Virus record (IMG/VR): IMGVR_UViG_3300021513_000001
Coordinates: 50,333-114,332 of that record
DNA: 64,000 nt
Source of the DNA: a virus
Direction: 5' to 3' (one strand)
A model generated the notes under the pieces. That model was not told where the DNA came from. It searched no databases and saw only the letters and a list, made by a program, of their open reading frames with translations. Below, in pieces: positions 22,571 through 64,000 of the stretch; position 1 is the first letter of the stretch; the number at the start of each line of letters is the position of its first letter. The translations under genes and the position numbers were made by a program.

Positions 22571-25537
22571 CTACAATCCATCATTTCTTATAATAAATTC
22601 AAACTCAAACGGGTCCATAACATTTCCAGATAAATCCTTACATTCAATACGAACAGTATAACTACCTCCATTATAAAAATTAGTCGTTATTGGATTAATG
22701 CTTGCTAACAAATCATTACGATCAAGACCAATACCAAAAATAGAAGCACCGAGATTTTTACGCTTATATTTTTCAATTCTTACATATATGCTTTCAGAAG
22801 AAAAGCTTGGAAAAATATCAACATTGTTTTCTGCAATCATCAGCATAGGTATTAATTTTTCATACTCATGTTTAACTATATGATAAATATTATAATAATA
22901 TCTTTTTCCATATTTCAAAAAATAGGAAGAAACATTTATATCACCTCGCGTATTAACAACATATACTATAATTTCAACATACTCTAATGGTTCAAGGAGA
23001 CTAATGTCATAACACCAAGAAACAGAATATCCTCTGGAAATTTTACTAAACTGTAAAACATCAACATAATTTCCAGTTATTATATTAGTATTCATATATA
23101 TATTTATTCCACTTTCTGTTACGCCATAATGTTTATCATAGACATCAACATTAAAACAAAAATCAGGAGTACCAAAACTAAAATTATCTACATTTATATT
23201 GAAATTTTCTATTATAACGGTATTAAGTTTTACCTCAAAACCATAGTCATCAACATCTAATAACGAACAACAAGTATTACATACATAACTCGATAATGCA
23301 CCACTAATAACTTGAATATCGGAAAAATAATAAGGAAAAACACCAGATACACTACAAACTATTGAGGAATAAAAATCATTATATACTTCATCAGAAACTT
23401 TTACATCTGAAAAAAACCTGACTAAACTACCCCTATCTGTTTTCGTTTCTGTCTTTACGTCACAACGACTTGCTGTTGAACATATTACATTCACTTCATG
23501 TGGAAAATATTTCCAATTTGACAAAACAAAATCAACATCAACATTTGTATACATATCGTTTTTAGACTCAACAACAAACTTAGTAGCAACATCAACATAG
23601 TATCCTTGATATAACTCCCCTAACCAAAAATCAATATAAATGTCATCAAACCAAGAATCAACTATAACATCAAAACAAAATTCTACCTGCTTAGATATAA
23701 TTCCACTACCTGATAAATCTCCCCACAAAAATTCCACGGGCTTTTCTAAATACATCGATTTTAAGTCTGCAATATCGTAATAACCATACTCTGTAGTAGT
23801 CAAACTCACACTATCCTTATCATGCAAAGCAGTTTTAAAATCAGATATAACATCTAAATATCCATCTTTTTTATTACCAACAACAAAATCTATTTCATTA
23901 TTTATACTAAACTTATTAAAATCATTTACTTTTATTACATAATTTTTGTTTATAATTCCAGAACTATGTGTAAGTTTTAATACAGTATAAAGCTCCGAAG
24001 GAGAACCAAAATATTTAGTAAAAATGGAATCGTATTTTAAACCAGAAACATGCCAATGACCCCCATTATCAAAAGAAACTGAGTATACAACACCAGAACA
24101 ACTATTAGATTCGAATATTACCTCATCTCCTGAAAATATAACTTCTGGCCAATTGGTTAAATAACCATTAATCATATTATTATCATACCCGGATTCTCTA
24201 AAAAAATTACTATTATCATATATAGTATTATGTAAATAATATGAATACAAAGGAGGTTTTGGCGGCAACAAAAATAAATCAAAAAAATAACATTCAATAG
24301 AATATCCACTAGAACCGCTTCCACCCAAACGTATTTCAGAAATACTAAATGTCCGTTTTATTACTAACTTAGTTAATCCATTTATAACAATATATGTATT
24401 AGACCCGTCACAAGTTATACTAAAAGTAGAACACTCATTAAAATATAACTTAGAACTAACACTATATTCATTTCCATTAATTTTAGCAACCAAAGACCCG
24501 TCTGAATATACATATACGTAATTATCAGACGAAAAATAAACGAGATAACCTTCTCCAAATAACAAATAACAATTAAAAAATAAAGTAAAAGAAGATTTAC
24601 TTATACTGCATGACACATATGTAGTACCGCCAAGAATTTTAACAGCATAAGTATCGCAAATAGGTTGATGAAGTGCTGCACTATGATTAGAAAAATTCGG
24701 CCCTATTTTAGAAATTAAAGAAGTAGTATCTAAAAAATTCACAATATAAGCATCGTCAAAAACATACTCTAAAAATCCAATACCTGTATGAATTATAACA
24801 TCATCTATATGCCAATAGTCACTAGAAGCATTTCCACGTGTTTGTCTGAACCTTATCCTAAACTCATTATGTAAAGAATCCTCAAACAACGTATGAATTT
24901 TATCATAAATTTGTCCAGGAGTACCGTTACCATAAAAAATATCCAATTGAACCCAATCGCTCTCATTATTTAAATACTCGACTATAAGATTTTCATTTGA
25001 ATCAGGATCTTCACTAAAAGAATCACTTCCTCTTCTAATCCAATAAAAAACAACTATAGGAACTACAACATTAATAGCCTTTGATGTTACACAAACAGCA
25101 CCAGACCTGGTATACATTGAGTAAATCCCTGATTTAGCAGTATGACTGCCAACACCAGCAACACCATTACCGCTTTTTACCCACCCGTTTGTATCTAAAC
25201 TACCGCTTTCAAAATCGTCTTCAAATAATTTTATATTATTTTCAATTTCAACACCATCATAATAAATAAACAAACTAGTATAATTTATATCATCAATAAA
25301 TATAATTTTAACATAATATTCTATTTTATCCACTTCTGGAAAAAATGTTTTACAAGAATAACAAAGAATATTACCATCAACATCAACAAAACTTATATAA
25401 TAATTTTTCTCAATTAAATATGGAATTACTTGGTTGGGTATTCTAACAACTATGACCTGGTTATAAGCATTATACCCAAAATTAGAAGGCTTTATTAGTA
25501 ATTCTAGTCTTTTTGAAAATTGAGGTAAGTGCCACAC
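22571..25537 (-). CDS. Tail adhesin with DUF2341-like, MAM/jelly-roll-like and LamG-like domains (988 aa)
   Basis: Starts at GTG 25537 (read as Met; WHLPQFSKRLEL follows), with AGAGG eight bases upstream. Residues 1-105 fit a DUF2341-type N-terminus, ending in a strand pattern like SLFIYYDGVEIENN. Residues about 105-250 match a MAM/jelly-roll-like sandwich beginning FEDDFESGSLDTNGW and ending DYWHIDDVIIHTG. Residues about 265-435 are LamG-like (SISKSSFTLFFNCYLLFG, then SEIRLGGSGSSGYSIE). The remainder is a long run of beta-sandwich units. The combination is typical of carbohydrate-binding surface proteins, so receptor binding is inferred. It is tightly packed after the 524-residue LamG gene. 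Confidence 0.8.
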   Translation of the reverse strand: MWHLPQFSKRLELLIKPSNFGYNAYNQVIVVRIPNQVIPYLIEKNYYISFVDVDGNILCYSCKTFFPEVDKIEYYVKIIFIDDINYTSLFIYYDGVEIENNIKLFEDDFESGSLDTNGWVKSGNGVAGVGSHTAKSGIYSMYTRSGAVCVTSKAINVVVPIVVFYWIRRGSDSFSEDPDSNENLIVEYLNNESDWVQLDIFYGNGTPGQIYDKIHTLFEDSLHNEFRIRFRQTRGNASSDYWHIDDVIIHTGIGFLEYVFDDAYIVNFLDTTSLISKIGPNFSNHSAALHQPICDTYAVKILGGTTYVSCSISKSSFTLFFNCYLLFGEGYLVYFSSDNYVYVYSDGSLVAKINGNEYSVSSKLYFNECSTFSITCDGSNTYIVINGLTKLVIKRTFSISEIRLGGSGSSGYSIECYFFDLFLLPPKPPLYSYYLHNTIYDNSNFFRESGYDNNMINGYLTNWPEVIFSGDEVIFESNSCSGVVYSVSFDNGGHWHVSGLKYDSIFTKYFGSPSELYTVLKLTHSSGIINKNYVIKVNDFNKFSINNEIDFVVGNKKDGYLDVISDFKTALHDKDSVSLTTTEYGYYDIADLKSMYLEKPVEFLWGDLSGSGIISKQVEFCFDVIVDSWFDDIYIDFWLGELYQGYYVDVATKFVVESKNDMYTNVDVDFVLSNWKYFPHEVNVICSTASRCDVKTETKTDRGSLVRFFSDVKVSDEVYNDFYSSIVCSVSGVFPYYFSDIQVISGALSSYVCNTCCSLLDVDDYGFEVKLNTVIIENFNINVDNFSFGTPDFCFNVDVYDKHYGVTESGINIYMNTNIITGNYVDVLQFSKISRGYSVSWCYDISLLEPLEYVEIIVYVVNTRGDINVSSYFLKYGKRYYYNIYHIVKHEYEKLIPMLMIAENNVDIFPSFSSESIYVRIEKYKRKNLGASIFGIGLDRNDLLASINPITTNFYNGGSYTVRIECKDLSGNVMDPFEFEFIIRNDGL

Positions 25538-32491: not shown

Positions 32492-33430
32492 TTATCCAGA
32501 ATAATCTATTTGATTAGCTAATGACAAAATACCCCAAGTTAAAGCATCATCAACACTATTTAAACAAGAATTCGGAAAATATTCTGGATCATTATATCTA
32601 AGCTTTTGTACTTTAGATCCTTTAGCATAAGAATTTTGTATTCCGTTAAACCCATGCACACCGGCTGTTGCTACCTCTATAGAAGTCGATGTTCCAGACA
32701 CCATTGTAAAATAATCACCAGGAATCTTATTACCACTAGCAGTTATACACAAAGAATCTCCAGCAACAGCATCCAACCCAGATTCAACATATAAAGTGCT
32801 AGTTCCAGCTGTATACGTGCTAGAAGTAACAACCTCACGAATATCCGTACCAGAAAGGCTTTTAGAATCTATTGGAAGATCAAAACCCAAAACACCACTT
32901 GCTGTTCCAGACGGATCAACTTCAACAGAAGAAGCCGAAGCACCAGCTAAAGTCTTAGATATCGTACCTGATTTTATAACAAACCTGCTATTAGTAAAAG
33001 AACATCTGCAATTCTTATAACCAAGAGTTTTTCCAGCATCAACAGTCTCCATAGTAACTGCCCGTAATTTTGTCTGAATATCAGATGCTACAGCATCACC
33101 AGTTAAATTTATACCCTCATCAAGCGTTATACTATAAAACTTACTAGCATTATCTATTTTAACTTTTAACTCTTTATTGCCAGAATTTATAGTAAAAACA
33201 GCACCTTTAAACCCAGAACTTTTACACCAACCACACAAAAATTCTTGTATAAATATATCGTCTATTGTTGTTTTATTAACATAATCAGAATATGCATTTG
33301 TCCTACATGTAAGTACAAACTTTTCGTCACCTTCTGCACCAACAGGTACTATTTTTAACAAATCCAAAGTAACAGTTTTTGAATTCTCAGAATAACCTTC
33401 CAAATCATATACAGTAGCATTTATGGCCAT
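32492..33430 (-). CDS. Tail-tip protein with flagellin-IN-like motif (312 aa)
   Basis: A 312-residue protein. The N-terminus (TVTLDLLKIVPVGAEGDEKF) is shared with the 162-residue neighbour. Residues about 90-185 hold the IN-like unit (FYSITLDEGINLTGDAVASD, then RFVIKSGTISKTLAG and VLGFD) also found in the 511-residue protein. The start codon ATG 33430 comes directly after a 167-nt mobile element (7 nt between). The native ribosome site therefore seems to be separated from the start by the insertion. Likely structural tail protein, inferred. Confidence 0.75.
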   Translation of the reverse strand: MAINATVYDLEGYSENSKTVTLDLLKIVPVGAEGDEKFVLTCRTNAYSDYVNKTTIDDIFIQEFLCGWCKSSGFKGAVFTINSGNKELKVKIDNASKFYSITLDEGINLTGDAVASDIQTKLRAVTMETVDAGKTLGYKNCRCSFTNSRFVIKSGTISKTLAGASASSVEVDPSGTASGVLGFDLPIDSKSLSGTDIREVVTSSTYTAGTSTLYVESGLDAVAGDSLCITASGNKIPGDYFTMVSGTSTSIEVATAGVHGFNGIQNSYAKGSKVQKLRYNDPEYFPNSCLNSVDDALTWGILSLANQIDYSG

Positions 33431-33437
33431 TTTTTTT

Positions 33438-33604
33438 ACCGATGCTTTTTTGTTAACTTACGTTAACAAATGCACCACTCTCCTTTTTTTAGAATGATGG
33501 GGGCATCTCCCAAAGCTCGCAATAAAATATTGCGAGCGCCGTTGATATCTCTATCGATCCTGTTTCTTTTAAAATGTTAATGTATTAACAACAGTTAATT
33601 ATCC
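33438..33604 (-). mobile_element. Non-autonomous IS200/IS605-type element (PATE), copy A
   Basis: A 167-nt element identical to copy B. In minus orientation it starts GGATAATTAAC with a left-end hairpin TTAAC-tgtt-GTTAA. It then keeps about 34 in-frame codons of a tnpB 3' end (IDRDINGARNILLRAL) and its stop. It ends with a right-end hairpin, GGTGC-a-TTTGTTAAC-gtaa-GTTAACAAA-aaa-GCATC, then GGT. No transposase is encoded, so it depends on a trans-acting one. Subterminal hairpins at both ends are the hallmark of this family. Because the tnpB 3' end plus right end forms the omega RNA in known TnpB systems, it may also be an RNA gene. Confidence 0.85.
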
Positions 33605-33621
33605 TCTTTTGTTAATTTTTT

Positions 33622-33927
33622 CTAAACTTCAAAATATCTTCTACCTATAAATTCAGTGGTATAATATGGACAATTATCGTCCATACATATCCACCCGCTT
33701 ACTCTTCCTTTTTGATAAAATCTCATTCTTCCAAAAGTTTGTGTATGGTCTGCTTTTGGATACGAACCAGACACCGTACTTTGCGTAGAATACTTACATA
33801 ATTTATATCTATACCCTGCCTTATTTGGATCAGATCCATCATTATACCTTTTATTCGTAGGTAAATTCCCACTACAAGTAGTACCAAATCTCTGCTCCCA
33901 AGTTAAAGCACAACGATTAAAAGACAT
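33622..33927 (-). CDS. Small protein of unknown function between two mobile elements (101 aa)
   Basis: A 101-residue basic protein with several cysteines (CALTWEQRFGTTCSG, then WICMDDNCPYYTTEF). Its ATG overlaps the end of the 136-residue gene by 11 nt, and GGGAG precedes it, indicating translational coupling. No family was recognised. The pair is bracketed by direct repeats of the 167-nt element. Confidence 0.65.
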   Translation of the reverse strand: MSFNRCALTWEQRFGTTCSGNLPTNKRYNDGSDPNKAGYRYKLCKYSTQSTVSGSYPKADHTQTFGRMRFYQKGRVSGWICMDDNCPYYTTEFIGRRYFEV

Positions 33928-34327
33928 AACTCTCCCTTAAAGATGAAAACGTTCTTGCTGGGTAATTTAAATACATTACATGTATATCTTCCTCATGACA
34001 ACTAGTATCTATAACTAAAAAATCATCACATAAAAATTTAGGAACTTTGCAAGAAGAGTCTATACTTATTATAGCGTCCTTTAAATAAACAATATTACCT
34101 GCATATATAACATCGCCCCAACTTAATGTAGCTATATAATAATTTTTAAGAAATATGACGTACTGGTCCGTAAAATCTAACCTTATAGACTCATTACACG
34201 CTATCCTATTAGCTATACGCAAAGCCGGGCCAGAAAAATAAGCACCGTCTAGACAGGCCTTTAAATCTTTCCCTGTCTTAACATACCTAACATTTATCCA
34301 ATGTAATTCTAAAATATACTTATCCAT
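33917..34327 (-). CDS. Small protein of unknown function after element B (136 aa)
   Basis: A 136-residue beta-rich protein (MDKYILELHWINVRY). No family was recognised. The start codon follows the right end of element B by only four or five bases, so no ordinary ribosome site lies directly in front of it. A GGAGAG within the element could act if the hairpin folds. It is coupled by overlap to the 101-residue gene. Confidence 0.65.
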   Translation of the reverse strand: MDKYILELHWINVRYVKTGKDLKACLDGAYFSGPALRIANRIACNESIRLDFTDQYVIFLKNYYIATLSWGDVIYAGNIVYLKDAIISIDSSCKVPKFLCDDFLVIDTSCHEEDIHVMYLNYPARTFSSLRESYVF

Positions 34328-34331
34328 AAAA

Positions 34332-34498
34332 ACCGATGCTTTTTTGTTAACTTACGTTAACAAATGCACCACTCTCCTTTTTTTAGAATGATGGGGGCAT
34401 CTCCCAAAGCTCGCAATAAAATATTGCGAGCGCCGTTGATATCTCTATCGATCCTGTTTCTTTTAAAATGTTAATGTATTAACAACAGTTAATTATCC
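34332..34498 (-). mobile_element. Non-autonomous IS200/IS605-type element (PATE), copy B
   Basis: Identical over all 167 nt to copy A, in the same orientation, 894 nt away. The left flank reads GTTTGTGT before the shared GGATAATTAAC, and the right flank after GGT reads TTTTATGG, which includes the start codon of the 136-residue gene. Complete identity indicates recent movement or gene conversion. Features are otherwise as in copy A. Confidence 0.85.
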
Positions 34499-39036: not shown

Positions 39037-42000
39037 TTATGTTTGTGAAGCAAATACACGTGCTGACCATGCTAAATCTTTAGCTTCTGCTACTTCTTCT
39101 CGTAGTTCATTAATCGCATTAGTAAACTTAGCACCCATAGTCCCCAAATTAGTTTGAAGTTGAACAAGAGCACTATCGTGATCATCTAACTTTTTATTTA
39201 TTAACTCAAATCCAGATTCCATTACCAAAACAGATGCTGTATTGTTAGCTACGTCTGTATCTAAATCTTCAACTAACCCTTTTAATTCTTTAATTGTTTC
39301 AGAACAACTAACTATTTCTTCTTTAAAAGCAATAAAATCAGTACTTTCTATTTCTTCTGTTTCTACTGGAACAGTATTTTTAATAATTTCAACATCTTCA
39401 GATAAAATTCTCGTCTTTTCAACTAATTCAGCTACTGTCTTCGAATCATTAGAAAGCTGATCTATGCTTTCAGATAATTCTTCTTTAACATTGTTTATCA
39501 AGTTTAATGCTTCCTCTTCAGAAATATATTCAACCACTTCTTTTTCTGCAGCTGCTGTCGGTCCTGATTCTTCTTTAGCTACATCAATTGTATTTATTTT
39601 AGTAGAAAGTGTATCTAACGAGATGGCTGTTTTAGACGCAGATTCTCCCAAATCGTCTATTAAATCTTTTGAAGACTTTGATGCCTCACCAACACTATTC
39701 ACGTTTTTTAAATTATCAGAAAGATCTACAAATAATTTATTAACATCAATAACTGATTCTTTTAACACCTCTATTTCATCTTTTAAGTTAGATACTTCTA
39801 TGTTTAACTTTTTGTTTTTCTTTAAAATTTCATCTGATTGCTTTACTTCTATATTTTTTTGACTATCTAGTTGAGCTTTTGGTTTCACTGCAAATTCTTT
39901 AATCTTATCTCTTTTAGTAGCAATCTCTTTACCTGCTTCTAGTACACTAGGTAAAAACGTTACATTTTTTTCTTGTTCCGGGTATGTAACAAACATTCCC
40001 TTTTTTTCCAAACTTTCCTTAATCTGTCTACGATTCTCCTCTTGAGAAAATTCTTGCCCAGGATACCTTACTGTAATTCCAGTCGTTTCAAAAAAACTTT
40101 TATATTTTTTTTGTCCTTCAGTTAATAAAGGCCGTTCATACGATGCGCCTACTTTATCTCTTTTATCAACAATTATAGGTTGTGATTTAACATTTTCACT
40201 TCTATTTATAGCATCAATAATACTTGCCCCAACATTTTCACCAGAAATAATTAATTTTCCTATATTATTTTTTATAGAATCCAAACGATCATTAGAAGGA
40301 GATATAGCACCCCTTATAGCTGTAGCATATTCTTCTGCCTGCACATCTCTAATCCTTTTTTCTTTAGCTTCCACCGCAACGCTTAAGTTTTTTTGTATTG
40401 CTTCTAAAGGCCCGCCCCTACCAATAAACGTACCAAAAGATCCTCCATATTTAGTAATATCCTCTCCTCTAGACGCTCTCTCCATTATATTATAAAGTTC
40501 CTTTGGATCAATTCCAGTATCTACTCCCTGTGCTCTCAAGCTTAAATTTTGACTATATAAATTTTTTGCAAGATCAAACTGCATACGCCTATCTGCTACC
40601 CTTTCTTGGGATAATTCTGACGTTCCTTGTCTTTTAGCCCATTTAGAAAAATCTATCTCTAAAGGCCTTATATTACGAGCACTCTCTATACCAGATAACC
40701 CTGTTTTTATAGAATCAATTATAGATTTCATCCCACTTACAGATTGCTGTAATGGTTCTAAAATCTTCCTTTTTTCTAACTCAAAAGTAGCACGCGCTTC
40801 CTTTTCTGCTTCATATACCTCAAGTAATTTTCTATTCCTTTCTTTTATTTCAGAAGGAACACGACCAAGCGTAGCTCTCAACTCGTTTTCTTCTCTTGTT
40901 ATTTGATCTAATGATTTACCCCTCCCAGCAGCAATATCCATTCGAGTCTGTTGTCTAATATTTGGAATACGTAATTTTTCTGCTTCTTTTCTAGCCTTAT
41001 CTTCTTCAACTAATGCCTTAGCTTGGTATTGTGAATAAAGTTTTTGTAGTTTTTCCAACCCCGGTGTTGTTTTATCAACAGCTTCTTCAGATTTTACATC
41101 AAATTCTGATCTTTTACCACTTGTACGTTCAACACCTTCTGCTGTTTTTGCAGTATTTTTTGCAATTTCATTTAAAACACTTATAACCGGCCCAAGCTCT
41201 ACAGAACCTGTTTCTAAAGCACCCTCAATCATACTATTTAATCTTTCATTAGATATGCCTTGTTGTTTAAGAAAGTCAACCTGTCCCATAATACCAGCCA
41301 TTATATCTGTTTTACTACGAACGGCTTTAACTTTTTCCAACTGTTTCAAATAAGAAATAGTATTTTCTCTATATTCTTGGTCTCTATTATATAATATCTC
41401 ATGAGGACTATATCTAGCAGTTGTAGATACATCAACTCCTATAGGTAAAGCTTCACGATATAAAGGCCCACCTTTTACATTCAATCTTTTAGCCCTTGAT
41501 TCAATAAGTTTTTGACTCTTTGCCGACTGCATATCTAAATTCTTAAAAGTAAATGAAAGATTTTCTACACTTTTAATAAGAGGATCAGTTACTTTAGTAA
41601 ACAAAGTAAAACTATTTATTATATTTTCTAAACTTTTACCAGAGTTGATTAATTCATCATTTAAATTTTCTATTTTTTCTTTATTTTTATTAGCGCTTAT
41701 TCCAATCTTTTCAAGTACTTCCTCCATAACTTTTTCCGGTGTTGCAATTTTGTTTGTAATAACACCAGTTTCAATTTTACTCTCCTTTTGTTGTCTCTTT
41801 TCTTCTTGTAACCCCTCAAAACGATTTTCAAGTAAATCAATAAACGTTCTTACTATTTTTTCATTATTTTTAATTCCAACACCAAAACCCATTGTGCTAA
41901 CTTCTTTACCGGCTATTTTTTCTTGTTCTGGTGTAAGTGTAGATGTTGGGTTGTATGGTAAATTTTTTGCAGTAGCAACGGCTGTAACAAGACCTGCCGG

Positions 42001-45000
42001 ACTAGGAATCATAATAGAAGGTAAAAGAACTTTTGTAAAATCAATCAGAGATTCACTATTTTTTAAACTTTCTTGTACTTCAGCTGGTGATTTTTTAGTA
42101 CTTTTGACAAGCGTAAGCGCTTCTTTAGAAGTAGCCTGTTCATAAATAGCCGACACATCATTAGGTGATAATTCCTTATACTTAGAACTTTGTTGTGCTG
42201 CTGTAACTAAATCACCAATACCGGGTATAGAAGAACCCAACTCAGTAACAGCTCTTATAAATAACTTGTTACCTTCCTTTTCGCCCAAAGTTTCTTTCAG
42301 TGCAGCAAGATATTCTTTAGTACCCTTTATATCCCTATTAGAAATAAAACGTCCTATATCTGCTTTAACCTTTAAACTTGCACCCCTTACAGCAATATCT
42401 CTATTAATCTCCCCTGTTTCTTTCATAGCCTGGGATAAAGCAGTTAATCCTGTAGGCTTATTACTCTCAAGAATAGTTTTAATATCACCAAGAGTATTTG
42501 CTGTTTTTTGTTCCAATTTAGTTTGTTTTTGTGTTTCAGTTAATAAAACAGCAGTTGATAACTCACCAGTCTTTAATATGTTTTCTGAAACGGCTGCAAA
42601 TTCTTTTTTATCAAACCCTTTCTGTTTAGATAAATCTTTTATATATTTTAAATCAACTTCAGCCGTAACAATTTTTTCCCCTCTTTTAACATATTTCATA
42701 TATTCTAATTCTTTTACATTATATTCTTTAGCTTTTTTTGCATATTCAGGTATAATAAAAGCCCTCTCAGCAATAGGTAATTCGCTCATTTTTCTCATAT
42801 TAATTTTTGGAGTAGGTATCAATTCCATACCAGCTAACGGTCCAGTTAAACGCTTCATAGTTCTTGTTCTAAATTTTTGTACAAGTTCCTGTTTTTCGTA
42901 AGTCACATCAATTTGTTCCAAAGCTTTCTTAAGATTCATAATAACACGCGCATCTTGTATAGCTACATTTGAAAGACCTGTTAAACTATTAATTAATTCG
43001 CTAATATTTTTAGATGTCTCTTCAGCAACATCACCGTGTTTTTCATTAACAGCAAGCGCAGCTTTTTGTGCTTTACGAACTTCTTCTTGACGTTTAACAT
43101 ATTCATTAATAAAGCCCATAGTTTCTTTAGAAAAAACCTTATAAGCATTATTTTGAATCAATATAGGAGTTTTAATTTGATAACGGTACATACTACCTAA
43201 CTCTAATTTTCCTTCTTTTATTGGTTTATACATACCAGCTTCAGCACCAACAAAATAACGAGATATTTTTCTAAGACGAACCTCTACATCAGTTAACATA
43301 CCTACAGCATTTATTACACCAATAAATTTATCAGAAATAACTGCTGTTTTCTTAAAATTTTCTAAAGTATCTGTAACAAATTTAAGCCCTTTTTCTTGAT
43401 TTTTACTAACTTCAACAGAATACTTAACCCATTTTTCACTAGCATCGCCTACACCTTTTTCAAAAACAGAAACCATATCGCCTAAATAACCTGAACCTTT
43501 CTTAAACATAAAAACATCTTTAGCTATAGCTTCTTCTAGTACGTTACGACGCTCCTCTTCAGTACTAACACCTCTAAAAGGAATACCCTGTTCCATTGCA
43601 GCTTGTTTTGTAAGTTCTGCAGAAGCCCTTATATTAACTCCACTAAGCCTTTGAGCAAAAGACGCTTGAATATCTTCAACAGATATTCCCTTATAAAACT
43701 GTTTATTTTTTTGCTGCTCTAGTTCAGCTAATGCCCTGCCTGTTGCTCCAAATGCAGCCTTGCCTGCAAGCTCTGGAGTCATACCAGGACCAGCCATTGT
43801 AAAGAAATCTCTTTTGATTTCTAAAAACTTATCATTAAACTCTGTCATAATATTAAGATGTTCTTTTTGTAATGCTGACCATCTTTTAAATCGATCCTCT
43901 TGTCTGCTGTACTCTTCTGGATTAATCTCCTTTAAACGTGTTAATGGAGCACGTATGATCTCCCCCTTCTGTCCAGCTTCATAACGCATTTTATTAATTT
44001 TTTCTGAAGAACGAATCATTCGTTCAAACAATGTTCTTCTTTTATCAGCATACTTTTCAAGAGATTTAAAACCAGTCATCTCTCCTAAATTACCAATACC
44101 TTCTCTAAACATGTATTGAAGTTTTTTCCAAAAACCTTTTATTTTTACAGCTTTCATCAAATCATCTAATTCTTCTTTTTCAATATGTAATTTTAAATTA
44201 ATCCTAGCATTGGCAGCAATCTCCTCAAGTTTAGCTATAACAGAATCTAACTTATCAGTCGATGAAACAATAGATTTACCAAATTTATCAAACCCAATAA
44301 AACCTTCAGAAGTTAAAGAAACAACAGCAGTAGCATATTCTCTAATGCTTTCTATCTGCTCTTTCTTCATTAATAATGGACTCTTGTACGATCTCCCTTT
44401 TACCTGACTAGCAATCTGTTCTTCAGTTAATTCTTCTAAAGCTTTTATTCTTCCACCTCTAATTTCTACTCTTGAACGTATCATCTTAACATTAGATATA
44501 GATTTTATTTTTTCCTCAACAACATCCAAAGCCTTTTTATAATCTTTAGTTCTATCCTCAGCAGAAGCAAAAGTTTTAGTCACAGCTTTATTAAACAAAT
44601 ACATTCCAACACCAAGTGACGCTATAACACTAATAAAAGTACCCAATGCCCCTAAAGAAGTCACTAACCCTAAAACAGAAAGAGATGCTTTACCTGTAGC
44701 TTTTACAAGAGAACTCATAGACTTTACAGATTTCTCTATCATAGCACCAGAAAATGCAAAGGAAGCACCAGAAACTAAACCCCTTCCAATACCAGACACT
44801 CTTGTTCCAACTTTTGGTAATAATGCCTTTGGAGACATCTGCCTAACCTTTTCAAAAACCTCTCTTCCTTTTTCTTGCTTCCCTCCAAATAGCGCCCCAA
44901 CAAGTTCTCTTGGTGTTCTTCGTTTTCTTTTAGCACCACCAATACTAGGCCCCAACAATCCAAACATTGACAAATCAAAATATTTACCAAGAGCAGTTGC

Positions 45001-48000
45001 ACCTAAATAAGCACTCGTACCAATAGTTGCTAAAGCACCACCATGTATGCCAGCAATTGCTTCAGTTACCGCTTTCAAAGAATCTGTAAGAGCTTTTAAC
45101 CCAGTTAAAATAGGCCCGCTAGCAGAAATAGCCAAAGCATTAAAAGAAGCCTTTAATTGAGCCGATTTCTTAGCTAAAGTCTCCATAACTAATTTATTTT
45201 CTTTTTCTGCCGACCCAACCGAATTAATACTAACAGCGCTAGCAGCCAAAGCTCTGTCATAATGCTCCATTAAAACCATAAGAGCATTATAATGTCGTAT
45301 ACCACCCATAGCTTGTGCTGTTGCTAATTTTTGAGCTCTAGTTAAACCAACCCATTTTTTAGCTAAATCATCTAAAACATCAGAACCTCTCCTAAGTCTT
45401 CCACCCTCAATAGTCTTAACACCAATAGCTGTTAATGCTTTTGGTGCTTTCTGTGTACCCATTCTTGAAAAAATAAATTTAAGAGATGTACCCACCTCCT
45501 TACCCGTTTGTCTTGTAGCTTCTCCAATTGCAGTAATAATACCATTAAGCTTATGAACACCTATACCCATTACCTTAGCAGCAGTACCAGCTTTTTTAAA
45601 ACCATCAGCTAAATCCTTTGCTGTTATAGCAAATTTATTTTCAACTTCATTCCAAGAATCAAGAATAGAAATAGACTTTTCACCTTCTATATTAAACTGT
45701 CTTGTAGCAGATGTTAATGCCTCAGCAGCCTCAGCCGGTTTCATTGTTGTAACATTTGCAGCAAGTGTAGAAACACGCGCCATCTCTTTTACTTGCTCTT
45801 GCGGAAGACCTTGCTGAGCAAATATACGCATAGTTTCAAACACACCTATTAACTCAGCACCATAGTCTTTAGCAAAACGAACAGCAGAATTTCGCATATT
45901 ATCAAAGTTAGTTGTAATAGGTGACATCACCTTCTTTAAATTGACCAAACCCGTTTCTGCTTGTTTCATTACTTCTATCATTTGTCTTGCGCCGCCTATA
46001 ATACCATATACCACTCCCGATGCAGCACCCCACAATGAAACCCTTCTAAGAACAGACCCTATTTGCCCCCCTCCTACTTCCTCCCTTTCAGATACCTTAG
46101 TTACTGGCCCAGCAAGACCAAAATACTTACCTCTAGCAGTAAGTCTTTTAGTTATAGCAACCTCTTCACCAGACTCTGTAAGAAGTTTACCTTTTATAAG
46201 CATAGACTTACCAATCTGATTAGCTCTTTTTAACTCCTCTTTTCCTTCTTCTATTCTTGAACGAAATGCAGCAAGTGAAGATTCCGGCGTCTCATAACCA
46301 CCCATTGTTATACCCTTGCGCGCAGCAATTGGAGTTTTAACTACTTTTTGATACATTCCCTGCGCTGCAAGCTGCGCCTGTTTATAAGCAGCACGTTCTT
46401 CTTCTGAAAGAATTACAGCACCGTTTTGTGCTTCTTTAAGCAACGCTATAATTTCTACTAAATCATTTTCAGCATTATCAAAATTTATAGCTTCTGTGTG
46501 TTTTCCAGCTTTTACCAAACCCACATCAAACTGCTTAACCCCAAGTAACATATCAGATATACGCTTATTAACGTCACCTGTTCCCTCCATAAACTTGCTA
46601 ACTAAAGTACTAGCGCGGGTTTTTTTATTTTTTTCTAATTCTCTTGCATATTCTTTAGCTGCTTTAGATTCTTGTTCTTCTATACCTGTAACAACACCAC
46701 CTTCACCAACAGCCTTAAGTTGTACCTGCCTTCTCTGCACAACCCCAGTAGTAAGAGGAACCGTAGCTGCAACTTTCATTGTTTTTCCAACAGCTAACGA
46801 AGCATCTTCCCACATAGCAGCTTTCTCTAATTCCACCTGTTTTCTAAATGCAGCTTCAGCTGATTCGGGAGTTTCCATACCCTTCATTATTATACCAGGC
46901 AATGCTTCTGGAGCTGTTTCTGCTACAGTACGAATAGCTGTTCCAATTTTTCTTTTTAATTGTGAAAATTCTACAAATTTTTCTGAACTAATACCTGGAG
47001 TTTTTATCATTTCGTTAAGAATCATCTGCATATCAGCTAAATCTTTAAGCGCTTCATCAAAATTAACAGTACCAGCAACATCATCAAATCTTTTTATACC
47101 AAGCCATACATCTTTTATTTTTTCATTTACATTTTTTGTTGAAGATTCGAATTCTTTTATAAGTCTAACAGCACGTCTACTTATTACTTCTTCCTTTTCT
47201 ACGGTAGGTTTCTCTTCTATTCTTTCAATTCCACCTACAACTCCTGGAGCATATAACCCCTCCTTTGCTCCTCTAGCAACAAGAGTAACTGTTCTCTTTT
47301 CAACCAGACCCTCTTCAGTAGGTATTTTAAAAGCAACTTTTCTTTTAGTCCCTACAACCAAACCCTTCTCTGCTAACATCTCTTTTTCATGCTTTTGTAA
47401 AAGAGCTTCAGCAGCAGCTTCTGCAGTTTCTCTGGTTTCTAATCCAGGTAAAACAAGAGTAGGCAATGCAGCGGCGTGGGTTTCTTGAACAGCCTTTTCC
47501 ATTTTAGTTACTTGCCTTACAGCATGTTCCAAATCAGAATACTCTTCCGGACTAAACATTCCATGAATTCTAAATGCTTTTAATTCTTCTTTAATTATTG
47601 CTAAATCTGCTTTCGCTTTTTCAAAATTAAAAGCTTTTCCACTTTTTGCTAACTCAGGATTAAATCTCCTTATTTCAGCCCACATAGTTTTTAAACGCTC
47701 TTCCATCCTTCCAGCCCCCATTAAAACAGGGGCTACAGCTTTTCCAGCGGTAGCACTTTGAACTTCTATAGCTTTTAATACTCTCTCCCTTTCATGTGGT
47801 ACACGATAAAGACCTAACTGCTCTACAGCTGCCTCATCTGCATACCCCAAAACCCTCCCACTTTCAGCCCTTTTCAAAAATGGAGTAGTTTTTTTACCAT
47901 AAGAACGAAGAATTACAGCTCCAGCCTTTCCTATAGCCTTTTCTCTTCCATAAATATCTCCAGCTTCTTCTGCCTGCTGAGCTATATCCGCTTCAGCCCT

Positions 48001-51000
48001 AGCTCTTTCTAAATGGTACTGAGCCCAAACAGTTTGTTGTTTAGGAAATGAAACACCCTTCATCGATGCTTTTAAAATTTCAGGAGCAACTAATGGAGAA
48101 ATCTCTTTAGCTCTCACAGCTTCAAGAACATTTAATGTTGGTTCTGGTAACCCTTCCTGAGTAAAACCAGTTCTCTTTTCAGCAGCAGCAATTAAATTCA
48201 TTAAAGCTTCTAATTTTGATTTATATTTAGGTTTTCCTCCCCCTGGTGGCACACCACCTGGAGGTATATTCCCTGGAGGTGCGCCCCCTGGCGGTACACC
48301 TGCTGGCGGTACACCTCCTAATGAAATACCAACTCTAGCAGCAAAATCAGCCAAACCTTCTTTTTCTAAAACTTTATAAGCTTTAACAGCCTTTTTCGCC
48401 TCAACCCCAAGTTCTGTTCCACCAGGTACAGCAGTCATCACAGACATGTTTTGTTTAATAAAAGTTAGAGCCTCTTGAATTTTTGCAATCTGTATATTTG
48501 TTAAACTTTTTGCCCCACCTAAAAGAAAATTTAAAGCTTCATTATACTCTTTTAACATATTAACTGCTTTTACAGCAGAAAGATCACCAAAAGCAGCATA
48601 ATCTATACCCTTAACACCGCCCTCTAATATTTCTCTTGCTCTATCTATTTTTGTTTCAGCTTTCTTTCCTGCGGTTAGTACTTCTATTTTCCCACGTTCT
48701 CTAACTAAAGCTTCCCGCTTCAATACAGTCTTTTCTGGTATATCTGGAACATCCTCTTCAGAAACATAACCATAACCTAATGGAAGCATTAACGGTCCTC
48801 TCGGAGGAATTTTCTTAGGCTTTTCTTTAACAAACAAACGAGCCTGCTCATACTTTGTCTTTACATCTGTTAATGGTTTCTCAGCAACTTTTAATGGCGG
48901 TGGCGCTGTCCCTATACTATATCCAGGAAACATAAATTGCTGTACATATTCTTCAGCTCTTTTTTTAGCCCTTCCTTTCTTTTTCTTAGTAAAAGCAGCA
49001 TATTCTTCTTCTTCAGCAACCTGTTTTTTATATTGTTCACCAACAATCGGAGAAATAGAAAACATCAAATCTTTTTTATACTCTGCCGACTTTACATATT
49101 GTTCAATCGCTTTTTTCCTATGTTGAAACAGGTATTCTTGTTGAAATTTTTCTATTTCTTCTTCTTTTGCTTTCGGGCGTTCTTTCTTAAATTTAGCAGC
49201 ACCCTCAGCCATAATCATTTCTTTTTCTTTCGTAGTAAGCCTTGGAACACCAAGCTTTTCTTCAAGAACGGCAACACCTCTACGTTTTTGTTTTGCAGTA
49301 GTCAAAGATTTAAATATTTTACCTAAATTAACACCAAATTTTTCCATTCTATTAAACATCGCAAACATATCCTTAAAAGCATCTTGCATCATAACATCTG
49401 ATACAGACACACCACTACCTGTTTGCTTGATAATTTCTAAAACTCTTATTATAGCTTTATCTAGGGTTGTTTTTCCTTTTTCTACTTGTTTGGCAAATTT
49501 TTCAACAGAGGCTGTAGAAGTTCTCAAAGAATAAAGAGGCTGCATTTGTGAAAAATATCTACCTAAATCTAATTCACCACTAGCAATTTGTTCCTCTATC
49601 ATAGCTTTTTGTTTTGGTGTCTTTGCAGTTTTTAAAACTTGATTTTGAATATCTTTAGCAGTAGCACTAAGAAAACCTTTAAAACTAAACTGATCAGCAT
49701 ACGCTTCTGTTATATCCTTACGTACCATCAATAGTTCTTTATCAGTTTTTCCCTTTGCTGTTTCAGGACTCATTCTCCGCACTTCTGATAAAAAATCTTC
49801 AGAATTTAAAGCATCTAACCTGTCTTTAATTGTAGTTTTTATTATTTCATTTGCTTTTAATATTCCCTTAAATCTTTCCGGTTCTTTCTGCATAGTAGCA
49901 AACAAAGTACCAGAAGCCATACCCTGCGTTACTTCCTGAAATATTGCCTTTCCACCGTGTTTTGCTGACATAGAGGCATTAATAACCTGTTCTAACAAAG
50001 CATTCATCATTGTTTGCATTTCACGAGCAGGTACAGCTTTTTGAACTAATTCGCCACCCTTTCCATACACAGCACCAAGAGCAACACTCTCAGGCTTCCA
50101 AGCAGCATACTCAGATTTAGTTACTTGTCTATCACCAAAACCTATGGAAGTTTCAATAATTCTCGCTAACCTGCTTATTGCTTCTGTTGATTCACCAAGG
50201 CCTGTTTTTACATACAGATTTTCATATTGCTTTGCACGAACTTTTTCATACAACATTTTTCTTGAAAAAGTCTCTATACCCTCTGCATCAACAATACCTT
50301 TTTTTTCAGCAATCTTAGATAAATGCCCTACAGTAATACCAAGATTCTTCAACCCCTCTAAAACATCAGGAGTAGTTAAATGTTTCATTTCTTCGGTTAT
50401 ATCGGGAGTTTTAAATATCTTAGCTCCAGGAATACCAGCCCTAGAAGTATACAAATCTGCAAGTTCTGCCATAGATCCTGTCAAACCAACTTCTTTATAA
50501 TTCATCATCTGATTAATAAAAGCTCTAGGATCTAAAGTACCAACTTTACCATATACACCTTTACGTGCAGCTTGATATTGAGCTTCTATTTCTTTTCTTG
50601 CTTTTTTTGTTTTAGCAGCATGAACATTAATTTCATCACCATCTAAATCTGCATTTTGAGCATAACCAGCAAACTTTACAGTAAGAAGATCTATAGCTTT
50701 AGACAACTCCATTATATTTTTAGTTAACTCGGCTCTTTGAGCATCTAATTCTTTTGCTTTTGCTGTACCCTTTTCTGCTATCGGTAATTCTGATCTTTCT
50801 TTTCTCAAAGATGCTTGTCTTAATTCAAGTTTTTCTTTGATTCTCTTCATCTCTTCAATATCAACACCAGGTGCTACACCACCAGGAATTGCAATAACAT
50901 CCCGCGCTCTTGGATGAACTAATTCCTTAGCAATACCAAATTGATGACTAGCAATACCAGTCATAGGAAATCTAGTAGTCATAACTGGAACATTTTGACC

Positions 51001-54000
51001 TTCTCTAACAGCATCTAAAAGAGTTTTCCCGGCCTTCCCATAATCACCAGTCAACTTTTCCATCTTTGCAGCAGGAATTCCTACCTCGCCCTCTCTTAAA
51101 ACAACAGCCCCGGCTTTTTTTTCTGCTTCTACTGCTTTCTCATGTTTTTCTGTTTGAGTTATAATCGAATTTACAAGAGTATTACCCAAAGATTTTGCCT
51201 TGTTTGGATCTCCTAAAACACCTTTTTCACTCAACCTATTTATTATTTCTGCTGCTTCTTTAAAATCTTCTACTTTACTGTTTATAGCTGCACTTAAAGT
51301 ACCACGTACAGCAGGCATAACTCTAGTTTGAAAAGATTCAACACCCTTTCCCTTACCTATAGTAGATTCAATTAAAGCTTTCTTTAATCTTTGCTTATCT
51401 CTCTCTATAAGCCTTATTTTCTCTTCTAAAGCTTGTTCTTTAACATCGGTAGTAACACCAAACTGTTTTGCAGCAACACCAAGAGCACCCTCACTAACAG
51501 AAAGTAATCCAGGCTTTTCAACACCAGCACTATATATATCTATACCGCGTTTTAACGCATTAGTAATCCACTCTCTAGCTTTCGGAGTCTCTTCCTCAAA
51601 ACCTTTCTCACCTATATCTGGTTTTTCTCTAGAACGTTTTTTATAATAAAAATAGGACTCAAGCTCAGTAAAAGGTTTGCCAGCCTTCATTCGTTCTAAA
51701 TCTCTTTCAAAACTTTCTATTTGTCCAACATCAATTTTAGGCTCCAACATATTATCTTTTACATTCATTAATAACCCAACAATACTTCTAGCTTCTTTCT
51801 TACCTAAACCTTTTCCAGCTTTAGATGCTTTTTCTAACAGAGATATTCCAGATCCAATCTTATTTAAAAGACTTCTAACAGGTGTCTTCATTGCTCCCAA
51901 ACCAACATCTCCAACAGCAGAAGCCTCTTTCAATATAATTTTTATTTTTTCAAAATAAGCTATCAGATTTTTTAAATCTTCATCCGAAACAGCAGAAGGT
52001 TGCTTAAAAGCTTTTGATACAACATTACGAAATACTGAAGAAGTCTCACCTATTTGGTCTTTAACATTTCTCCTTAAAACATCTACATTTGCTTTCTCGC
52101 CCTTTAAATATTTCGTCTTTTTTATCTTTTCATAATCTTCCACATTACTCAACAGACTATTATATAACACTGCTAACTTATTAGCACTAACTGCACCACC
52201 TTCTTCAGCATAAGCACCAAGACTTTTTCTAGACGGAATATATAATGGCCTTCTTCCTATTTCTTTTCCTTCTTCAAATTCTGGAACTTTAACAAAGCCA
52301 CCAGCTCCAAATTTCTCAATATCTAAAACAGTATCACGCAAATCTTTATATTTTGATATTACACCTGGTAATTCTCTAATACCTTTTGTAGATATGTATG
52401 GGGCTTTAGTCTTTACTGGTTCTTCTTCAAGAGTTTTCAAAGCAAATATGTTCTCTAAAGCAGCACCAGTATCCGGTTTATAACCGCCAAGTGTTTCTTG
52501 GACTACAGCAGATCCCTCACCAAATGTTGACATAAGAGCAGCCATAGCCGCTACGTTCAATTTTTGCCCTTTAATTCTTCTTTCTATTTGTTTTTGTGAC
52601 CACTCTTCATACCTAGAAGGCTCACGAGTATATCTCCAAAACTTCTGTCCTGCAATAACACCACCAGCACCTTTACCAGAATACATTGGTAAAGTTCTCT
52701 CTTCTATAGCAAATTTTTCTTCCGGCCCCCAACCATAACCCATGGCTTGTAAATATTTAGAAACCTCACCAGTTGAAGTAAGTTGTTCAGGTGTTAGTTT
52801 CGGAGCTATAGCACCTTTAACATTGCCTGCAATATTATTAATAACAACCTCCAAAGGTTCAGCTAAATTTAAACGTTTAGTTGCACCAGTAAGACTCATT
52901 CTTACTTCCGTCGCTATTTTTTCAGTCAGTGCTCCAGCACCAAGAATCTGCTTAGCTTTTTTTCTTCCCTTCTCTATAGACTCAGGAGTAGCAACTCTAA
53001 TATCAATATCTAAAATTTTCGAAACAGCATTTCTTATTTTTTCACATTTACTTTGAACCTCTTTTGATAAATCTTTATGCATAAATTCAACAAAAGGCAT
53101 TGTTCCAAGCTCATCCAAATCTGTAATAAGTTTATCTATCTCTTTATCTGTCTGTCTACTTACCCCTTTCTTTGTTTCAAGCATTTTTTGAATAAGTTTA
53201 TGATATGACGTAGCTTGCTCCACATAACCAAGCTCTCCTTCTTCTCCCTTCCCAAACTTCACTACACCCTTTGAACCATAGTGTGTCGTCATTTTGGTCC
53301 CTAAAGCAGTAAATAAGCGCTCAACAATTTTAACAGCAACTGCCTCTAAACTTTCCCCACCAGCACTGGTTAAAACTTTTGATATTTCACTAACCATCTC
53401 CCTTCCAGTCTCGCCTTCACCAACACCACCAATTCCAAAAGTTTTTCCAATATCTGGAGCATATTTTGATACTATATCTTTAGCTACAAGCTCTGCCCCC
53501 TCTACCCCACTTACATCTTTTATCATAGGTTTTATATATTTTGCAAACCTATTAACTGCTTTACCAGCTATTTCTATTTGATCTTCAAAAGTACCAGCAG
53601 AATCTTTTATAACTGTCTGCAAATTAAGACCATAGCCCCCTTCTCCCCACAAACCCTCTTTTTCTGCAGCACGCCCACGAATACTTTGCAAAAGAGGAGT
53701 TTCTAACTCACCAATCACCTTACCACCAAGAGCTTTACCTCCCCCTAATGCATGATATGTTGGTGCTAAAGTACGTGCAAAATTACTCCACTCGCCTAAA
53801 GGTATATACTCCCTAATATTACCAGCAAAAACATTCATTCTCATTCTAAAAGGATCTGTAACATCAGAAGCCAACTTAACTGATCTGCTTTCACCAACGC
53901 CTTGAGAACTTAAACGAAATTGTTTTCCAGATAACGCTAAATATTTTTCAATTTCCCTATTATGAGCAACCAACTGCTTGCGTTGTAGCTCTCCAGCTAC

Positions 54001-56758: not shown

Positions 56759-57493
56759 TTATTTCTTTATTTTTTCATTTTTTGTTTTTTTCTTTACGGT
56801 TTTATTTTTTTCTGTTCCAACATCTTTATCAGATATTTGCTTCATTTTTTTATTTTCTTTATCTTCGTCAGAAACTTTATCAGTAGTTTCTTTTTCATTT
56901 TCTTCTTTTTTATTTTCAATATCTTTTAAAACCATAGCTTCAGGAACAGTATCTAAAAAATCAGAATCTAAACCCTGCAAATAAAGCATCACTTCAAATT
57001 TTGCACGTGTTTGTAAAACTTGATCTGTTTCATTAAGAAAAGCATCATAATCCTTCCAAACAAGCTCTCCGTTATCAGATACAACAATACAGCTTGTCAA
57101 AAACTCAAGCTTAGCATCGTCAGCAATCTGTTCACAGGTATTGCTCATAGGACCATTAAGCCTATGATTCCACTGAAAAATTTCGTTTCTAATGTTACCT
57201 GTTTCTTCAGCAGCTTTCTGCCTATCTTCATCAGAATCGGCTGAATACATTTTACTAATAGAAGCCTCTAACATGTCAGTCAACTCTTGAGAACGTTTAT
57301 CGTATTCTGGTCCAATAATTCCACGTTTTTTTAAGATGTCTCTCATTTCAGAAGCAGTATAAATACCTTCAACAAGAGATTTTGAATAGACTTTACTATA
57401 ATTCCAATCTGAGTTTCTTATATTTGATGCGGTTGGCTGATTAATATAATATACATTACCATCTACTGTAAAACTTCTTCTTTCTATATCCAT
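56759..57493 (-). CDS. Tail-assembly chaperone-like protein 1 (244 aa)
   Basis: A 244-residue protein with strong AGGAGG upstream. Residues about 30-80 (DWNYSKVYSKSLVEGIYTAS, ILKKRGIIGPEYDKRSQEL) are shared with the 339-residue protein. The last 50 residues are a Lys/Glu-rich tail that looks disordered. Position between the tail tube gene and the tape measure fits the gpG-like chaperone slot. Runs of A near the 3' end include slippery-looking strings, but the shifted frames stop almost at once. Confidence 0.75.
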   Translation of the reverse strand: MDIERRSFTVDGNVYYINQPTASNIRNSDWNYSKVYSKSLVEGIYTASEMRDILKKRGIIGPEYDKRSQELTDMLEASISKMYSADSDEDRQKAAEETGNIRNEIFQWNHRLNGPMSNTCEQIADDAKLEFLTSCIVVSDNGELVWKDYDAFLNETDQVLQTRAKFEVMLYLQGLDSDFLDTVPEAMVLKDIENKKEENEKETTDKVSDEDKENKKMKQISDKDVGTEKNKTVKKKTKNEKIKK

Positions 57494-57511: not shown

Positions 57512-57550
57512 ACCAATGTTTTTTTGCTAACTTACGCTAACAAATACATT
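57512..57550 (-). repeat. Diverged right-end hairpin of the TnpB-type element, copy D
   Basis: Minus strand: AATGT-a-TTTGTTAGC-gtaa-GTTAGCAAA then ACATTGGT. It matches the right end of copies A-C but with paired changes: the outer stem GGTGC/GCATC has become AATGT/ACATT. The GNRA loop is kept. The left end and tnpB remnant are not recognisable. It sits directly before the AGGAGG of the first chaperone gene. Confidence 0.7.
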
Positions 57551-57613
57551 ATTCCACAATTAATTAATTTTTCTAAGACATTTTTATTAGTCTTATTTTT
57601 AAAAATAGTAAAA

Positions 57614-63765: not shown

Positions 63766-64000
63766 ACCGATGCTTTTTTGTTAACTCACGTTAACAAATG
63801 CACCACTCTCCTTTTTTTAGAATGATGGGAGCATCTCCCAAAGCCCGCAATAAAATGTTGCGAGCGCCGTTGATATCTCTATCGATCCTGTTTTTTGAAA
63901 CGGTAATAAACTTTTTAGCGCCAAGATTTTCTATGATTTCTCCAGTCCAAGAGTTTGTTTTGCTTGTAAAGGCTTCACTAACTCTAAGAACGGTTTTACC
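63766..64000 (-). mobile_element. IS200/IS605-type element carrying tnpB, 3' end (copy C), partial
   Basis: The right end (GGTGC-a-TTTGTTAAC-gtga-GTTAACAAA-aaa-GCATC then GGT) matches copies A, B and D. It contains the tnpB stop inside the hairpin. The tnpB reading frame runs out of the window, so the left end and any tnpA are not visible. It differs from A/B at three silent codon positions and in the loop (GTGA versus GTAA), both GNRA. Confidence 0.8.
63791..64000 (-). CDS. tnpB: TnpB-like RNA-guided nuclease, C-terminal fragment
   Basis: The last 69 codons of a TnpB-like protein. RVSEAFTSKTNSWTGEI matches the family block E-A-Y/F-TSKT-C-S-x-C-G, but both cysteines are replaced (Asn, Thr). 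The next Cys pair is also missing (FITVSKN). The RuvC-III segment IDRDINGARNILLRAL is intact, including its acidic residues. The protein thus lacks the usual zinc ribbon. TnpB proteins cut DNA using a guide RNA made from the 3' end of the element. The N-terminal RuvC motifs lie outside the window, so activity cannot be judged. Confidence 0.85.
   Translation of the reverse strand, partial: GKTVLRVSEAFTSKTNSWTGEIIENLGAKKFITVSKNRIDRDINGARNILLRALGDAPIILKKGEWCIC

What the first reader, a model, noticed from the sequence alone, without database searches (positions are those of the whole stretch)
33438..34498. Mini TnpB-type elements that could encode guide RNAs aimed at tail-gene starts
Copies A and B keep exactly what known omega RNAs need: the tnpB 3' end, the right-end hairpin and an adjacent guide. 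The guide would cover AAAAAAAATGGCC (A) or TTTTATGGATAAG (B), the start codons of the next genes. With TnpB supplied by copy C or a relative, this would cut element-free alleles in co-infecting phages and favour spread of the insertion.
Basis: partly seen in the sequence, partly recalled or inferred. Interest (0 to 1): 0.85.

Follow-up and report, generated by a model that had tools for sequence, protein, structure and literature searches.

The report
Phage mini-transposons carrying ribosome-binding hairpins
Two identical short jumping-gene remnants in a bacterial virus sit exactly in the ribosome-binding sites of two neighbouring genes. They keep a complete guide-RNA scaffold for the DNA-cutting enzyme TnpB, and they appear to bring a replacement ribosome-binding hairpin so that the genes behind them can still be translated.

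Summary
A (33438-33604) and B (34332-34498) are identical 167-bp mini-elements on the minus strand. C (63767-64000) is the 3' end of a tnpB cut off by the contig end. They are IS607-type: both ends carry the GG crossover dinucleotide, and the nearest complete relatives have a serine-recombinase TnpA.

Stem 1, stem 2 and a pseudoknot that includes the right end are kept in A and B, and covary across 18 elements (99.3% of cells paired; 41 two-sided changes against 10 in shuffles). Targeting of gene starts is real but follows from insertion: the GG target lies in Shine-Dalgarno (SD) sequences, and related phages without the insert have a plain SD there. The gene drive itself is untested.

The main new finding is that the right end carries AAAGGAG directly before a long covarying hairpin, with the start codon 5-13 nt after it in most copies. 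Six decayed copies in this phage and a related one keep exactly this SD-hairpin unit and have lost the guide scaffold. One of them is the only recognisable SD of a portal gene. I infer a transposon-borne split ribosome-binding site, like those of T4 genes 25 and 38.

The parts
33439..33604 (-). Mini-element A, GG to GG (RE GG 33439-33440, LE GG 33603-33604)
   Evidence: 100% identical to B; boundaries from comparing A, B, D and G1a flanks
34333..34498 (-). Mini-element B, GG to GG (RE GG 34333-34334, LE GG 34497-34498)
33439..33566 (-). omega-RNA scaffold of A (tnpB 3' end plus right end)
   Evidence: shared with C, D, G1a; stems and pseudoknot covary with bacterial IS607 elements
34333..34460 (-). 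omega-RNA scaffold of B
   Evidence: identical to A
33515..33537 (-). stem 1 of the scaffold in A (GCUCGCAAUA-UUU-UAUUGCGAGC)
   Evidence: 4 of 8 counted pairs with changes on both sides among 18 elements
33503..33507 (-). pseudoknot loop GAUGC (pairs with GCAUC at the right end, 33441-33445)
   Evidence: 5 pairs, 100% of cells paired, 3 pairs with two-sided changes
33480..33486 (-). AAAGGAG, Shine-Dalgarno sequence inside the right end of A
   Evidence: 7/7 kept in all six decayed copies E, F, G2a-d
33441..33476 (-). right-end hairpin of A between the SD and the start codon
   Evidence: 95.2% of cells paired, 4 pairs with two-sided changes
34374..34380 (-). AAAGGAG in the right end of B
   Evidence: as A
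34335..34370 (-). right-end hairpin of B
   Evidence: as A
33419..33438 (-). predicted guide of A (TAAAAAAAATGGCCATAAAT), covers the start codon of gene 32492-33430
   Evidence: sequence; by analogy with ISXfa1 reRNA (PMC10711439)
34313..34332 (-). predicted guide of B (TTTTTATGGATAAGTATATT), covers the start codon of gene 33917-34327
   Evidence: sequence; by analogy
33567..33604 (-). left end of A
   Evidence: shared by A, B and D only
34461..34498 (-). left end of B
   Evidence: identical to A
63767..64000 (-). copy C: 3' end of a tnpB gene (69 codons visible, stop at 63791-63793) with right end
   Evidence: PF07282 over cut-off
57513..57554 (-). remnant H: hairpin kept, right-end SD lost; next gene (56759-57493) has its own AGGAGG
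   Evidence: model R1 E 8.5e-8, sequence
32492..33430 (-). gene behind A (312 aa, function unknown)
   Evidence: orthologs in L134/L135, 41-42% identical, with plain SD
33917..34327 (-). gene behind B (136 aa, function unknown)
   Evidence: orthologs 50% identical in L136/L137 with plain SD

Best explanation
A and B are non-autonomous IS607 elements (internal deletion of tnpA and most of tnpB) in a phage. Shown by sequence: (1) they sit at a GG dinucleotide and, in most copies, in the Shine-Dalgarno sequence of a gene, in the same orientation as that gene, so the right end lies just before the start codon. (2) They keep a complete omega-RNA scaffold, with stem 1, stem 2 and a pseudoknot to the right end, whose guide would be the start of the next gene. 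(3) The right end has AAAGGAG immediately 5' of a long hairpin, and the start codon just 3' of it. (4) Decayed copies keep exactly SD, hairpin and start codon and lose the rest. Inferred: the hairpin brings the SD to a usable distance (9-16 nt instead of about 45), so the element replaces the ribosome-binding site it destroys. This makes insertion in essential genes tolerable, and some old copies became the gene's ribosome-binding site. Also inferred: while young, the copies can give guide RNAs for a TnpB supplied in trans.
For: GG at both ends with otherwise different flanks AGAGG, TGTGG, AAAGG and the common RE end GCATCGG. Nearest full elements: TnpB with a serine recombinase TnpA. Empty-site orthologs have plain SDs: site A GAGG and AAAGGAG; site B AAAGG and AAGAGG; portal GGAG or AAAAGG; the 392-aa gene GGAG (two relatives); g2955 GGAG. 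RE within 3-16 nt of an ORF start: 10 of 21 bacterial junctions against 12.7% of random GG (p 1e-4); 10 of 13 phage copies, read from the sequences, against 6.4% (p 3e-10). Scaffold covariation 99.3% paired, 41 two-sided cells against 10.0 in shuffles and at most 49% paired when slid. Hairpin 95.2% paired, 4 two-sided pairs. SD pairing energy near the start codon of RE-bearing genes is weak (-3.5 to +1.5) but -8.7 to -12.1 when the SD before the hairpin is counted. AAAGGAG 7/7 in all six decayed copies, while the stem-3 strand a few nt upstream is lost; in H, which has its own AGGAGG, it has decayed. T4 genes 25 and 38 use such split sites (PMC3014915).
Against: No expression data. In young copies (A, B, D, C, G1a) stem 3 of the omega-RNA fold can pair part of the SD, so initiation may be weaker there. 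Two remnants have no hairpin-borne SD (H, with its own SD; G2e, with none), and F has a second predicted hairpin and a 41-nt spacing. B's own pre-insertion flank TGTGG is a poor SD. Reinitiation from the upstream gene is not excluded. Spacing of 13-16 nt in some copies is long. The hairpin search that found most remnants is biased toward copies that keep the hairpin. A one-nt indel in D and G1a puts their upstream segments out of register.
Confidence: 0.7

Rival explanations
1. Trans-acting omega-RNA drive: the mini-elements are kept because their guide RNAs direct TnpB from copy C to cut element-free alleles in co-infecting phages, so the insertion is copied in by repair.
For: Complete scaffold with covarying pseudoknot in A, B, D, G1a; the frame in D and G1a is broken by a 1-nt indel while stem 1 keeps a two-sided change; tnpB 3' end present in C; the retained ~127 nt plus guide is close to the ~150-nt reRNA of ISXfa1 (PMC10711439); drive shown in plasmids (PMC11870625).
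Against: Full TnpB not seen; TAM and activity unknown; decayed copies lose the scaffold but keep SD and hairpin; no close empty allele found; guides match only their own loci at 0 mismatches.
Confidence: 0.3
2. Plain transposon litter: GG targets happen to fall in SDs because intergenic space is tiny, and the hairpin and AAAGGAG are leftovers of tnpB coding and right-end sequence with no role.
For: In C the AAAGGAG lies in the tnpB reading frame (KKGEW); GG targeting alone explains the position before start codons.
Against: All six decayed copies keep AAAGGAG and the hairpin while neighbouring sequence is lost; lower-stem changes stay paired where the pseudoknot partner is gone; RE-bearing portal and 392-aa genes have no other SD, whereas orthologs do.
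Confidence: 0.2
3. Switch: the same leader has two exclusive folds, omega-RNA (GCAUC with GAUGC, SD partly in stem 3) and ribosome-binding site (GCAUC with GGUGC, SD free), so TnpB binding or processing tunes expression of the gene behind it.
For: Both pairings are possible in A, B, D, G1a and C; guide maturation would remove the start codon from the mRNA (inference).
Against: No direct evidence; decayed copies have only the second fold.
Confidence: 0.12

Closest known systems
IS607-family elements and their TnpB/reRNA (ISXfa1, PMC10711439; ISFba1, PMC11061315)
   Same: GG crossover; TnpB; reRNA made of the tnpB 3' end plus right end with a pseudoknot; published G-rich TAMs (AGGAG, GAGGG, GGG) that look like SD sequences
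   Different: A and B lack tnpA and most of tnpB; no TnpA in the record; the right end carries an SD plus an extended hairpin absent from the Chromatium/Methylococcales relatives; no Rfam match
MITE-type non-autonomous derivatives of insertion sequences
   Same: short, multi-copy, both ends kept, internal deletion
   Different: keeps a full guide-RNA scaffold and a ribosome-binding unit
Split ribosome-binding sites of phage T4 genes 25 and 38 (PMC3014915)
   Same: SD far from AUG, brought near by a hairpin (27 to 11 nt, 22 to 5 nt)
   Different: here the unit is dispersed as part of a transposon right end, with many copies at unrelated genes
TnpB gene drive in plasmids (PMC11870625)
   Same: would use the flank as guide against element-free copies
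   Different: shown for IS200/605 with TnpB in cis; here phage, IS607, RNA in trans, not shown
TldR phage-encoded RNA-guided repressors (PMC13418256)
   Same: phage-borne TnpB relative with guide RNA
   Different: guides here match only the own insertion site; the visible last RuvC motif of C is kept

Membership tests
IS607 family | GG dinucleotide at both junctions, no other target duplication | tested here: met
   A, B, D flanks; consistent with orthologous empty sites
IS607 family | serine recombinase TnpA | tested here: not met
   no PF00239 in the record, which is incomplete; expected for a mini-element; present in nearest full relatives
IS607 family | TnpB | tested here: met
   in copy C only: 69-aa C-terminus, PF07282 E 5e-9
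IS607 family | reRNA scaffold with pseudoknot to the right end | tested here: met
IS200/IS605 family | Y1 (HUH) transposase | tested here: not met
   no PF01797 in the record, which is incomplete
IS200/IS605 family | insertion 3' of a fixed 4-5 nt motif | tested here: not met
   left flanks share only GG
OMEGA guide RNA (omega-RNA) | RNA made and bound by TnpB, guide from 3' flank | not testable with these tools
   scaffold structure supported; RNA and binding need experiments
OMEGA guide RNA (omega-RNA) | TAM next to the target in the empty site | tested here: inconclusive
   left flanks end in GG, compatible with published IS607 TAMs; TAM of this TnpB unknown
Split SD (T4 gene 25/38 type) | SD far from AUG with a stable hairpin between, reducing spacing | tested here: met
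   effective spacing 9-16 nt in 9 copies; P(upper stem) 0.78-0.99
Split SD (T4 gene 25/38 type) | hairpin enhances translation in a reporter | not testable with these tools
   needs experiment
TldR | RuvC-dead TnpB with guide to a remote promoter | tested here: not met
   guides match only own loci at 0 mismatches; DRDINGARN kept in C, other catalytic residues not visible

The most novel reading that the evidence does not exclude
The right end is a bistable RNA: with TnpB it folds as a guide scaffold aimed at the ribosome-binding region of the empty gene, without TnpB it folds as a hairpin-bridged ribosome-binding site. The element both replaces the site it destroys and links expression of phage structural genes to TnpB, and old copies are domesticated as the only ribosome-binding sites of genes such as portal.
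Probability: 0.15. Interest if true: 0.85.

Novelty: new variant of a known kind. Interest (0 to 1): 0.62.

Why it matters
It gives a concrete answer to how an element that inserts into Shine-Dalgarno sequences can live in a compact phage genome: it carries the replacement. It also links omega-RNA evolution to translation, since the same right-end hairpin serves first as guide scaffold and later as ribosome-binding site, and it shows guide-RNA-only mini-elements in phages. If general, IS607 TAMs that resemble SDs (AGGAG, GAGGG, GGG) would mean that these nucleases naturally target gene starts.

Tried and rejected
IS200/IS605 assignment: rejected (left flanks share only GG; no Y1 transposase). 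Rfam match: none. Transcription terminator: rejected by inspection, no U-run after the hairpin on the coding strand. Copies in GenBank phages and a right-end pattern in bacterial genomes: no match. Protein of gene 33917-34327 as a probe for close relatives: nothing; left-end pattern in viral contigs: nothing. Full TnpB in viral contigs: only a distant element, L020. Relatives of a virus record by kinship: tool does not offer it. Off-target sites of the guides: none closer than 3 mismatches for A and B; D has a 1-mismatch site in L097/L099 that I take as chance. Model R1 in 64 related phage contigs: outside G002's own record (L070) only one weak hit, E 0.31, so the SD-hairpin unit is limited to close kin of this phage and G002.

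Full report
What is there. The window is G000:50333-114332 of a 114,332-bp linear virus record. A (33438-33604) and B (34332-34498) are identical over 167 nt on the minus strand; a third, partial copy, C, lies at the contig end. In tnpB sense each mini-element is a left end of about 38 nt fused to the last ~127 nt of a tnpB plus right end. C is a true tnpB 3' end (69 aa, PF07282) cut by the contig end. No Y1 transposase and no serine recombinase are in the record, which is incomplete. A full mini copy D (G000:14581-14742) and right-end remnants E, F and H lie elsewhere in the record; one copy (G1a) is in G001, an overlapping record of the same virus, and five (G2a-e) are in G002, a related phage contig.

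Which transposon. Left flanks are AGAGG, TGTGG and AAAGG; the right end is GCATCGG. The only shared junction feature is GG, the IS607 crossover dinucleotide (PMC10711439). The nearest full relatives, in Chromatium, Methylococcales and others, carry the same right end (TTAAGAAAAAAGTATCGG), a TnpB and a serine recombinase with a helix-turn-helix domain (PF00239, PF12728). So these are mini-IS607 elements.

Guide-RNA scaffold. Across 18 distinct 3' ends (4 phage, 14 bacterial) stem 1, stem 2 and a pseudoknot between the stem-2 loop and the right-end 5-mer are kept: GAUAC/GUAUC, GAUUC/GGAUC, GAUCA/UGAUC, GAUAA/UUAUC, GCUAC/GUAGC, and in the phage GAUGC/GCAUC. Of all cells 99.3% pair; there are 41 two-sided cells against 10.0 in shuffles, and slid versions pair at most 49%. 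The same pair of stem 1 is G-C in A, B and C and A-U in D and G1a. A and B therefore hold the complete scaffold, and their 3' flank would be the guide. This supports the anatomy in the finding. RNA production, TnpB binding and cleavage are not shown.

Why gene starts. In related phages with the same gene order the empty positions are ordinary Shine-Dalgarno sequences: site A GAGGAAATAAA-ATG and AAAGGAGAAATTTACC-ATG; site B AGAAAGGATTAAAGGC-ATG and AAGAGGCTTAA-ATG. The same holds at the G002 portal gene (GGAG, AAAAGG), the 392-aa gene (GGAG in two relatives) and g2955 (GGAG). Right ends lie 3-16 nt before an ORF start in 10 of 21 bacterial junctions against 12.7% of random GG (p 1e-4) and in 10 of 13 phage copies, counted by reading, against 6.4% (p 3e-10). 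Thus the element goes into the GG of SDs, always with the gene's orientation because GG is asymmetric. Published IS607 TAMs AGGAG and GAGGG (PMC11061315) and GGG (PMC10711439) look like SDs as well. Guides covering start codons follow from this.

Right end as ribosome-binding site. Directly 5' of the right-end hairpin all young copies have AAAGGAG; directly 3' comes GG, 5-11 nt and the start codon. The hairpin (14 pairs) is 95.2% paired with 4 two-sided pairs in 12 sequences, and its upper stem forms with probability 0.78-0.99. In the decayed copies E, F and G2a-d the scaffold, stem-3 strand and left end are gone, yet AAAGGAG is 7/7 in every one (D and G1a are out of register upstream of a 1-nt indel in that table). 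Their right-end 5-mer no longer has its pseudoknot partner but still pairs locally (GGUGU/GCACU, GGUGC/GCACC, GAUGC/GCAUC). Close to the start codon these genes have only weak SD pairing (-3.5 to +1.5 kcal/mol, against a median of -4.2 for 110 genes); with the hairpin skipped it is -8.7 to -12.1 at an effective spacing of 9-16 nt, F excepted. Genes with only this site include the portal gene (phrog_16240), which the phage must translate. H is a natural control: its gene has its own AGGAGG after the hairpin, and there the right-end SD has decayed. T4 genes 25 and 38 use the same split arrangement, proven by reporters and probing (PMC3014915).

Interpretation. Young copies (A, B, D, G1a) can serve as guide RNA and as ribosome-binding site; the two folds compete for GCAUC and part of the SD. 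With age the scaffold is lost and the ribosome-binding unit stays, which points to selection on translation of the next gene. That the hairpin acts as a spacer is inference from structure, conservation and the T4 precedent. Drive by TnpB in trans remains possible (precedent in plasmids, PMC11870625), but the full TnpB, its TAM and any near-identical empty allele are missing.

Novelty. I found no paper in the held library that joins IS607 with Shine-Dalgarno insertion or with a right-end ribosome-binding site. That library is incomplete, so this is not proof of absence. I rate it a new variant of a known kind: IS607 mini-elements with guide scaffold plus a portable split ribosome-binding site.

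Noticed in passing
window 59535-60374 (-): 279-aa LAGLIDADG homing endonuclease (phrog_11023, E 5.7e-16), another selfish element in the same tail region.
   Followed up: no
L009:4243-7086: Large terminase of 947 aa in the related phage G002 with an intein-like, homing-endonuclease-bearing insert.
   Followed up: no
G004:24089-24154 and 24697-24756 (L072), same in G005 (L073): Two further short tnpB 3'-end fragments of a different subfamily, each between capsid-region genes, with a GATCATGTTTTACATGAT hairpin; possibly a second mini-element family.
   Followed up: partly
G001 against G000:1-7400: IMG/VR record of 22.7 kb that overlaps the left end of the window's record at 98-100% protein identity and extends it by about 15 kb.
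   Followed up: partly
L028, L029, L037-L039, L045: Some bacterial IS607 right ends end in AAGGATCGG or AAAGGTAGCAG, also SD-like and close to the next start codon; other lineages may carry a replacement SD in another way.
   Followed up: no
window 39037-55728 (-): Single ORF of 5563 aa among tail genes, beside ORFs of 3320 and 2362 aa.
   Followed up: no
copy C 63767-64000 and L030-L045: TnpB C-termini of this clade lack the usual zinc-finger cysteines (TSKTNSWTGEI / TSKTHPETGEI).
   Followed up: no
G002:14949-14980: Remnant G2e: apical hairpin and start codon kept, SD and lower stem lost, no other clear SD.
   Followed up: partly
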